Assembly: GCF_002356355.1 (NCBI RefSeq)
Contig: NZ_AP018052.1
Location: 1,612,001-1,676,000, forward strand
DNA from: Thiohalobacter thiocyanaticus
GTDB taxonomy: Bacteria > Pseudomonadota > Gammaproteobacteria > Thiohalobacterales > Thiohalobacteraceae
DNA: 64,000 nt
Direction of reading: 5' to 3'
How positions within the stretch are numbered: the first letter of the stretch is position 1; every line of letters starts with the position of its first letter. A model generated the notes under the pieces. It searched no databases and was not told the DNA's origin. It worked only from the letters and a program-made list of their open reading frames with translations. The translations under genes were made by a program, and so were the position numbers. Positions 14,672 through 58,292 of this stretch are shown in pieces.

Positions 14672-14788
14672 AAGAGCGCCACGGAATACACGGAATACAC
14701 GGACAATTGCTTAACCGGCGCACGCGCTACGCGCGGCGCCGGAGAACAAAACTTTTTCCGTGCATTCCGTGTATTCCGTGGCGCTCTT
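14672..14788. repeat. CACGGAATACACGGA palindrome, copy 1 (leuC/leuD junction)
   Basis: Arms of 32 bases at 14672-14703 and 14757-14788 are complementary with one mismatch; they start with AAGAGCGCCACGGAATACAC. A core hairpin lies at 14715-14742 (CCGGCGC...GCGCCGG). The element starts 5 bases after the leuC stop and ends 18 bases before leuD. Confidence 0.92.
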
Positions 14789-15448: not shown

Positions 15449-15557
15449 GAGCGCCACGGAATACACGGAAAACACGGACAATTGCCTGCCGGCGCGCGCG
15501 CTATGCGCGGCGCCGGAGAACAAAATCTCTGTCCGTGCTTTCCGTGTTTTCCGTGGC
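15447..15557. repeat. CACGGAATACACGGA palindrome, copy 2 (leuD/leuB junction)
   Basis: The left arm at 15447-15478 starts inside the leuD stop codon and has the same AAGAGCGCCACGGAATACAC beginning as copy 1. The right arm is at 15532-15557. The inner 26 bases pair with two mismatches. The core hairpin is at 15489-15516 (CCGGCGC...GCGCCGG). Confidence 0.92.
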
Positions 15558-16673: not shown

Positions 16674-16785
16674 ATAGCCACGGAATACACGGAAAACACG
16701 GACGATTGTTTGCCGGCGCACGCGCTGCGCGCGGCGCCGGAGAACAAAAACATTTTTCCGTGCTTTCCGTGTATTCCGTGGCTAT
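16674..16785. repeat. CACGGAATACACGGA palindrome, copy 3 (leuB/asd junction)
   Basis: Arms of 29 bases at 16674-16702 and 16757-16785 pair with a single mismatch. The terminal bases are ATAGCCACGG rather than AAGAGCGCCACGG. The core hairpin with CCGGCGC and GCGCCGG is at about 16713-16740. Confidence 0.92.
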
Positions 16786-53370: not shown

Positions 53371-53399
53371 TTGACAGTTCCGAAGCGGCCTTGTATAAA
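53371..53399 (+). promoter_or_regulatory. hupB: Strong promoter for hupB
   Basis: A perfect TTGACA (53371-53376), a 17-base spacer and TATAAA (53394-53399). The predicted start near 53406 leaves a leader of about 315 bases, most of it the palindrome at 53487-53649. Confidence 0.85.
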
Positions 53400-53486
53400 A
53401 GCCGCGTGCCACGATATTTGTAATCTCATATCGACTATATCCGACTCCGGCATATCCGATTACGGATTGCGAGTCTAAGTCCGGAT

Positions 53487-53649
53487 TTCTTACCGCGGAT
53501 CGTCGCGAGGGCGTCGATGCAGTTGTAGATGCAGGGCGCACGCAGTGCAGGACGGCGCCGGCGTAGCTGACACTACGTCAAGCCGGCTGGAGCGAGTACG
53601 CGCTGCAGATACAACTGCATCGGCGGTCGCAGTAGATTAGCGGTGAGAA
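53487..53649. repeat. 163-bp imperfect palindrome in the hupB leader
   Basis: The outermost arms, TTCTTACCGC (53487-53496) and GCGGTGAGAA (53640-53649), pair; a perfect 13-bp inner stem is at 53515-53527 and 53610-53622 (CGATGCAGTTGTA). The centre has further short hairpins, e.g. CGTAG...CTACG. The core GATGCAGGGCGCACGC (53528-53543) recurs with one change downstream of hupB at 54044-54059. Confidence 0.85.
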
Positions 53650-53720
53650 ATGCGGGCTAAAACTGGCCGCTCTCGATTTCTTTCTCATCACATCCCAAAT
53701 CCAAGGGGGAATGGTAGATT

Positions 53721-53993
53721 ATGAATAAAGCTGAACTGATTGACGCCGTTGCCGATGCCGCGAACCTGTCCAAGGCCGATGCCACCCGCGCGGTTGATGC
53801 CGTGCTGGATTCCGTGACAGGTGCCCTGAAGAAGGGGGAGCAGGTCAGCCTGGTCGGCTTCGGTACCTTCGAGGTTCGCGAGCGCGCCGCCCGCCAGGGC
53901 CGCAATCCGCAGACCGGCGCGACCATCCAGATTGCCGCCTCCAAGGCGCCCGCATTCAAGGCTGGAAAAGCGCTGAAGGATGCCGTAAACTAA
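53721..53993 (+). CDS. hupB: DNA-binding protein HU-beta
   Basis: A 90-residue histone-like protein matching HU along its whole length: [20 protein letters not shown], the dimer-core [20 protein letters not shown], the arm [19 protein letters not shown], and the end [11 protein letters not shown]. It bends and compacts DNA as a dimer. The gene has its own strong promoter and lies between lon and two tRNA genes, the standard Pseudomonas-like site. AGGGGGAATGGTAGATT before the ATG contains a ribosome site. Confidence 0.98.
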
Positions 53994-54002
53994 GCACTTC
54001 GT

Positions 54003-54248
54003 TTCGCCCTATTTTGCATTCTCAGCGACACGAGAAACGGCGAGATGCAAGGCGCACGCGCGCCGGAAGGGGATCCCCTTTCAAGTGTGTGCAACGCAGC
54101 AGATGGCCGTTTCTCGTGTCGCCCGAAGGGAGCCCTCCCAATCAACCAAGGCTGTGTTACAGCCCTTGGAAAGGGATGAGCCATTCCCTGCGGACTGTGC
54201 CTTGCCTTGGTTGATTGGGAGGGCTCTGAGAAAGCAAAATAGGGCGAA
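54003..54248. repeat. 246-bp three-arm palindromic element between hupB and tRNA-Val
   Basis: Closing stem: 54003-54025 pairs with 54226-54248 in 22 of 23 positions (TTCGCCCTATTTTGC...). Inside are two separate hairpins: a perfect 17-bp stem 54025-54041 with 54106-54122 (GCGACACGAGAAACGGC), and a perfect 22-bp stem 54131-54152 with 54204-54225 (AGCCCTCCCAATCAACC...). No credible reading frame uses it. Confidence 0.93.
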
Positions 54249-54270
54249 CCGGAGTGCCATCTGCTTTTGA

Positions 54271-54518: not shown

Positions 54519-54823
54519 GGCCACGGAATACACGGAAAGCACGGAAATACAAGGGCAGAAACTTAGATAGCGGCTCTGTCTGGCCCGCTGCATGTCGTTC
54601 CGGCGCAGACCGGAAAAACGCGTAGCGTGTTGAACGCCCGCAGCGAGTAATCCAGAAACCGACGTGGTTGGATTCCCTCTTTCACGGACGACGTAGAGGC
54701 CTGATCGCAGCGATTTATACTGCCCTTTGCGCAAACCAGTATGGTTCCACCTCCATGCCGGCTTTGACGCCAGGGGCATGACGGAGTGCTAATTTTTTCA
54801 GTGTTTTCCGTGTATTCCGTGGC
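54519..54823. repeat. CACGGAATACACGGA palindrome, copy 4, with enlarged interior
   Basis: The left arm at 54519-54545 (GGCCACGGAATACACGGAAA) and the right arm at 54799-54823 (TTTTCCGTGTATTCCGTGGC) belong to the leu-operon family. About 250 bases separate them instead of about 50, and that interior lacks the CCGGCGC core. No plausible gene is seen in the interior on either strand. Confidence 0.8.
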
Positions 54824-58085: not shown

Positions 58086-58292
58086 CGCAGAGGACGCGGA
58101 GGCGCAAAGATAAAATGCCGTTAAGGAAACTCTGAAAATTACTCTTTCCGTCATTCCCGCGAAGGCGGGAATCCAGTATTGCGCAGGATAGTCAGACGCT
58201 GGATCCCCGCCTTCGCGGGGATGACGCAGCTGAAGCAAGTACCTTTATCTTTGAAAAACTCTGCGCCTTCGCGTCTCTGCGTCCTCTGCGTT
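58084..58292. repeat. Nested palindrome (AACGCAGAGG outside, ATTCCC-N8-GGGAAT inside)
   Basis: The outer arms, AACGCAGAGGACGCGGAGG (from 58084) and GTCCTCTGCGTT (to 58292), belong to the family at 2465. Inside, CGTCATTCCCGCGAAGGCGG at 58149-58176 pairs with its inverted partner at 58199-58226. The inner unit contains ATTCCC-N8-GGGAAT (58153-58172), the pattern of the neisserial dRS3 repeat. Confidence 0.85.

What the first reader, a model, noticed from the sequence alone, without database searches (positions are those of the whole stretch)
54003..54248. Three-arm palindromic element downstream of hupB
A 23-bp closing stem (22/23 paired) encloses two independent perfect hairpins of 17 and 22 bp, giving a Y-shaped fold of 246 bases. 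This is far beyond a terminator and resembles no Rfam class I can name. It sits between hupB and tRNA-Val. It could be a structured RNA, a non-autonomous mobile element or a cruciform-forming DNA site.
Basis: seen in the sequence. Interest (0 to 1): 0.72.

Follow-up and report, generated by a model that had tools for sequence, protein, structure and literature searches.

The report
Three-armed TA-inserting mobile DNA palindrome
The odd Y-shaped palindrome after the hupB gene is one copy of a large, apparently uncatalogued family of tiny gene-less mobile elements, spread through many proteobacteria and probably related to the ERIC repeats of enteric bacteria, whose arms differ from copy to copy yet always stay self-complementary.

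Summary
The fold is real (53994-54257 including an outer extension; z -15.8) and is a non-autonomous mobile element, not an isolated accident. Thiohalobacter thiocyanaticus has a clean empty site: the element entered the CTAG of the hupB stop codon. Relatives have the same 3-arm plan: a ~31-bp terminal stem ending in TA, two head-to-head hairpins 14-15 nt apart, a small GNA hairpin (UNCG on the other strand) between them, and a conserved ~55-nt module at each apex. All three stems vary between copies but stay paired within a copy (outer stem 26.3/28 paired, against 7.7/28 when halves are swapped). A covariance model of the hairpin finds it in 27 of 150 genomes of the phylum. A nested insertion shows duplication of TA. 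No Rfam family matches. Terminal repeats of some members match those of E. coli ERIC at 21 of 27 positions (0 of 20,000 shuffles as good), so ERIC is the likely best-known relative. Best reading: a MITE moved in trans by an unidentified TA-specific (Tc1/mariner-IS630-like) transposase, with an inner fold under strong selection, probably as folded single-stranded DNA. The transposase and the role of the apex module remain unknown. A second, single-hairpin element lies upstream of hupB (53476-53659).

The parts
53991..54260 (.). whole inserted stretch relative to T. thiocyanaticus (3-arm element; target CTAG = hupB stop codon)
   Evidence: alignment of the window with the G002 orthologous locus; relatives have a 10-16 nt spacer here
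53994..54025 (+). left strand of the outer stem / terminal inverted repeat (32 nt, 91% complementary to 54226-54257)
54226..54257 (+). right strand of the outer stem / terminal inverted repeat
54029..54118 (+). hairpin 1 (module in sense orientation, GCAAGGCGC...TCAAG...GCAACGCAGC)
   Evidence: CM R1 73.4 bits
54123..54129 (+). mini-hairpin CC-GNA-GG within the spacer GCCCGNAGGGAGC (UNCG tetraloop on the other strand)
   Evidence: sequence
54133..54223 (-). hairpin 2 (same module, opposite orientation)
   Evidence: CM R1 83.6 bits
53476..53659 (.). second, single-hairpin element (184 bp, TA...TA ends) inserted upstream of hupB; divergent module at 53513-53624
   Evidence: empty site in G002; R1 23.2 bits, E 0.003
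53371..53399 (+). sigma-70-like TTGACA-N17-TATAAA upstream of the single-hairpin element, consistent with transcription of both insertions in the hupB mRNA (inference)
53721..53993 (+). hupB; its stop codon is TAA here and TAG (CTAG) in G002, G003, G007 and G009

Best explanation
It is a non-autonomous transposable element (a foldback MITE) of about 264 bp. Shown: copies are dispersed, some identical; orthologous and nested empty sites exist; insertion duplicates TA in one lineage, with CTAG often the target for the GTGT/GTAC-ended types; the ~31-bp terminal repeats and the two inner hairpins keep their pairing while their sequence changes; two copies of one apical module sit head to head. Inferred: a TA-specific DDE transposase of the Tc1/mariner-IS630 kind, supplied in trans, cuts at the terminal repeats. 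Also inferred: the inner hairpins are displayed when the DNA is single-stranded or extruded as a cruciform, where a protein reads the conserved unpaired letters of the apex on the module-sense strand. Copies that lose pairing stop spreading, which is why arms drift mainly by compensated changes. At this site the element entered the TA of the hupB stop codon, kept the gene intact and separated hupB from the tRNA-Val/tRNA-Asp genes.
For: Copies: 7 modules in this genome, 46 in T. thiocyanaticus, 79 in G003. Identical pair L023/L024 at different loci with CTAG ends. 22 copies of the terminal repeat, each paired with its inverse, in G003. Empty site at hupB in G002, and a 10-16 nt spacer in relatives. 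Nested insertion L135: flanks joined with one TA match unoccupied repeats over 54 nt. TA at both ends in 76 of 121 elements and at one end in 25 more. Covariation: 451 double-change cells against 147 +/- 10 shuffled, 27 of 30 pairs; outer stems 26.3/28 own against 7.7/28 swapped, arms 13.3/15 against 4.3/15. G.T over A.C in arms 108:18, module-sense strand. IS630-type gene L147 in G003 is followed by a sequence like the terminal repeat of the type E elements.
Against: No autonomous element with these ends was found. PF13358 (IS630 catalytic domain) is absent from this genome, G001, G002 and G009, and from 7 of 12 other carriers. In 1.4 Mb of held DNA no gene lies between matching ends. The end of L147 could be a MITE remnant. 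The right TA of the window copy is missing. IS630-type transposition is not known to need internal hairpins, so the transposase does not explain the conserved core. The wobble asymmetry is concentrated near the module and the copies are related, so it is weaker than its count suggests.
Confidence: 0.72

Rival explanations
1. A structured RNA: the element is transcribed (here in the hupB mRNA) and the folded RNA acts, for example as an RNase III/E processing site, a stabiliser, or a ligand of an RNA-binding protein; mobility only spreads it.
For: Covariation with G.U tolerance and a UNCG-type loop on one strand look like an RNA. The element lies downstream of hupB and its promoter-like sequence. 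Correia and ERIC transcripts are cleaved by RNases (PMC10969869).
Against: The two modules are head to head, so any transcript shows one in sense and one in antisense. No Rfam match. No expression data are available.
Confidence: 0.25
2. Pairing is kept not by selection but by intrastrand templated repair (template switching at palindromes), so the arms are homogenised automatically in a passive MITE.
For: Long, near-perfect, copy-specific arms in all three stems.
Against: Unpaired apex letters, junction letters and the 14-15 nt spacing are conserved too, which templated repair does not explain. G003 sister copies that differ at few sites show uncompensated changes.
Confidence: 0.15
3. The hairpins are targets of an HUH/Y1 transposase (REP-RAYT-like) rather than cargo of a DDE MITE.
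For: Folded single-strand recognition fits the wobble asymmetry. Y1_Tnp genes occur in 16 of 17 genomes tested.
Against: Y1 genes are also found in genomes without the module, and only 2 of 30 Y1 loci have a module hit nearby, one of them weak. Terminal repeats with TA duplication point to a DDE enzyme.
Confidence: 0.08

Closest known systems
ERIC / IRU (enterobacterial repetitive intergenic consensus, 127 bp)
   Same: TA ends; terminal repeats up to 21/27 identical to those of 3-arm elements in another genome; AAGGC...AACGC ring of the hairpin aligned by R1 at the same place, but only 10.6 bits; dispersed and intergenic.
   Different: One hairpin, about half the length, different apex; no 3-arm junction; the R1 score alone is not significant.
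Correia/NEMIS and RUP elements (TA-target MITEs; RUP linked to IS630-Spn1, PMC2229807)
   Same: Short, gene-less, terminal repeats, TA target, transcripts that fold.
   Different: Not described with a pair of inner hairpins sharing a module; known from Neisseria and pneumococcus. Sequences not compared here.
CIR repeats of Caulobacter/Brucella (two long hairpin arms with a linker; PMC2229807)
   Same: Two-arm fold.
   Different: Described without the closing terminal stem; GANTC motif. Sequences not compared here.
REP / REPIN with RAYT (PMC3116915, PMC3733652)
   Same: Inverted pairs of small hairpins, dispersed, intergenic.
   Different: REPs are 20-40 bp with GTAG or CGTC tags; here ~90-nt arms, terminal repeats and TA duplication.
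Pseudomonas fluorescens R200 / R178 repeats (PMC2718517)
   Same: R200 is 320 bp, intergenic, 47 copies in SBW25; 3-arm elements exist in ~6-Mb genomes that may be Pseudomonas.
   Different: Identity not tested: SBW25 is not in the collections used.

Membership tests
[quoted passage not shown]
[quoted passage not shown]
[quoted passage not shown]
   TA: nested empty sites; TA at both ends in 76/121; right TA lost in the window copy
[quoted passage not shown]
   none found; L147 suggestive
IS630/Tc1-mariner derived | TA target | tested here: met
IS630/Tc1-mariner derived | related transposase in the same genome | tested here: not met
   no PF13358 in G000
ERIC | ERIC-like terminal repeats | tested here: inconclusive
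   met for L371-L373 (20-21/27); other end types at most 15/27, and the window copy's ends were not among the matches
ERIC | 127-bp single-hairpin body | tested here: not met
   two hairpins, ~264 bp
known Rfam RNA family | score above gathering threshold | tested here: not met
REP/RAYT system | 20-40 bp palindrome with GTAG or CGTC tag next to a RAYT gene | tested here: not met
   size and ends differ; no consistent Y1 linkage
intrinsic terminator | short GC hairpin followed by a T run | tested here: not met
   264-bp three-arm structure, no T run after it

The most novel reading that the evidence does not exclude
A previously unrecognised superfamily of mobile elements across Pseudomonadota, with ERIC as its best-known single-hairpin offshoot, whose movement depends on a folded single-stranded DNA cloverleaf: a conserved apex is read by an unknown protein while all stem sequences are free to drift.
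Probability: 0.4. Interest if true: 0.85.

Novelty: new variant of a known kind. Interest (0 to 1): 0.72.

Why it matters
ERIC has been used for typing for decades, but how it moves and why it keeps its shape is not settled in the sources read here. A related group in which the fold demonstrably covaries, with twin modules and fresh copies in culturable bacteria (T. thiocyanaticus, Microbulbifer), makes the question testable. The covariance model also gives a way to annotate many repeats that are apparently blank in proteobacterial genomes.

Tried and rejected
Rfam at gathering and lax thresholds: nothing. Viral contigs and phages: no match; plasmids: one partial Azotobacter match. IS630 as resident mobiliser: absent from most carriers. 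RAYT linkage: not specific. Search for gene-bearing versions with the same ends: none. Intergenic preference by joined-flank reading frames: fewer spanning frames of 250 aa or more than at random points (54% against 78%), but in GC-rich DNA this is too crude to claim more. A first helix-3 wobble script matched nothing and its rewrite was biased by selection (53:4), so only the unbiased arm count is used.

Full report
WHAT IS THERE. The window lies in a 3.23-Mb single-contig genome (G000), consistent with Thiohalobacter sp. COW1 (3.23 Mb, PMC7892661). The inverted repeats are as reported, with an outer extension to 53994-54257. The fold is far outside chance (z -15.8 RNA, -14.2 DNA). The junction is four-way rather than three-way: between the arms sits GCCCGNAGGGAGC, a GNA mini-hairpin on this strand and a UNCG loop on the other.

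COPIES. BLAST finds a second copy and partial ones in this genome and many in the genus and family. Most show two hairpins 14-15 nt apart inside a long stem. Both hairpins carry one ~55-nt module, GCAAGGCGC-N5-CGC(A/C)GG-stem-loop-TCAAG-N5-GCAACGC-NGC, head to head. A covariance model (R1) counts 7 modules in G000, 46 in T. thiocyanaticus (G002, identified by its 3,056,480-base contig), 79 in G003 and 13 in G009. A strict pattern hits 14 of 369 genomes of the class with no control hits. The inner spacing is 19-21 nt in 79 of 80. Across the phylum R1 hits 27 of 150 genomes, 19 of 92 genera, at E <= 1e-6. Members with the same plan occur in AT-rich and 6-Mb genomes.

STRUCTURE UNDER CONSTRAINT. 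In 50 modules, 90.4% of cells pair and 451 show compensated double changes against 147 +/- 10 after shuffling; slid controls collapse. Among 39 non-redundant outer stems the two strands match at 26.3/28 within an element but 7.7/28 between elements; hairpin arms give 13.3/15 against 4.3/15. Mismatches in arms on the module-sense strand are mostly G.T (108) rather than A.C (18), as expected if the folded sense strand is what is read; the excess is concentrated next to the apex and copies are related, so this is support, not proof.

MOBILITY. G003 has 22 near-identical copies whose 31-bp terminal repeat is always paired with its inverse and almost always flanked by TA. One of them (L135) sits inside the terminal repeat of another element type; joined flanks with a single TA match unoccupied repeats without a gap. 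Two identical copies in G002 sit at different loci bounded by CTAG. TA is present at both ends in 76 of 121 elements. At hupB the orthologous spacer is 10-16 nt in relatives; alignment with G002 shows a clean insertion at the CTAG of the hupB stop codon, with the right TA not present in this copy. A second, single-hairpin element (184 bp, TA ends, divergent module, R1 23.2 bits) was inserted 61 bp upstream of hupB, below a TTGACA-N17-TATAAA sequence, so hupB is bracketed by two insertions.

MOBILISER. TA targets point to a Tc1/mariner-IS630-type enzyme. In G003 an IS630-type gene (L147) is followed by a sequence resembling the ends of one element type. But the IS630 catalytic domain is absent from G000, G001, G002, G009 and most other carriers tested, and no gene-bearing version was seen. 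The enzyme is therefore unidentified. Y1/RAYT genes are present almost everywhere and not specifically linked.

RELATION TO KNOWN FAMILIES. Nothing in Rfam. The terminal repeats of 3-arm elements L371-L373 match the end of E. coli ERIC (fetched) at 20-21 of 27 positions (0 of 20,000 shuffles reach 21). R1 aligns to ERIC at the expected place but weakly (10.6 bits, E 0.06). I treat ERIC as the likely best-known relative, not as a proven member. RUP and Correia/NEMIS share TA targets and folding transcripts (PMC2229807). R200 of P. fluorescens (320 bp, 47 copies; PMC2718517) may be a member but was not tested. Ten literature searches in an open-access library found no description of this family; subscription papers were not searched.

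VERDICT. A new variant of a known kind (TA-target MITE) with an unusual, strongly constrained three-arm fold. The mobile nature and the covariation are shown; the transposase and the reason for the fold are inferred or open.

Noticed in passing
53476-53659: Single-hairpin TA-ended element upstream of hupB, absent from T. thiocyanaticus; its longer apex recalls ERIC.
   Followed up: partly
14680-14780, 15455-15555, 16679-16780, 54522-54821: Another palindromic repeat family, CACGGAATACACGGAAA in inverted pairs, 14 matches in the window.
   Followed up: no
58149-58226: Inverted repeat ATTCCCGCGAAGGCGGGAATCCAG with a 22-nt loop; similar sequence seen in L110.
   Followed up: no
2462-2700: Long inverted repeat of GAACGCAGAGGACGCAAAGGCGCAGAGACGCC type (43-nt arms).
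   Followed up: no
L017, L019, L051: The same ~24-bp stretch (CAAGGCGCCTACTGTTGGTGC) interrupts one arm of hairpin 2 in three copies of T. thiocyanaticus.
   Followed up: no
L125, L128, L133 (G003): A different insertion sequence end (GTGTTAACA...) abuts the element's end and replaces its TA.
   Followed up: partly
L095, L109, L117 (G294); L103, L114, L375 (G373): Single-module elements with other terminal repeats (for example TACTTCTCGCGATCAAGAATACCCC in G373), useful for testing orientation against transcription.
   Followed up: partly
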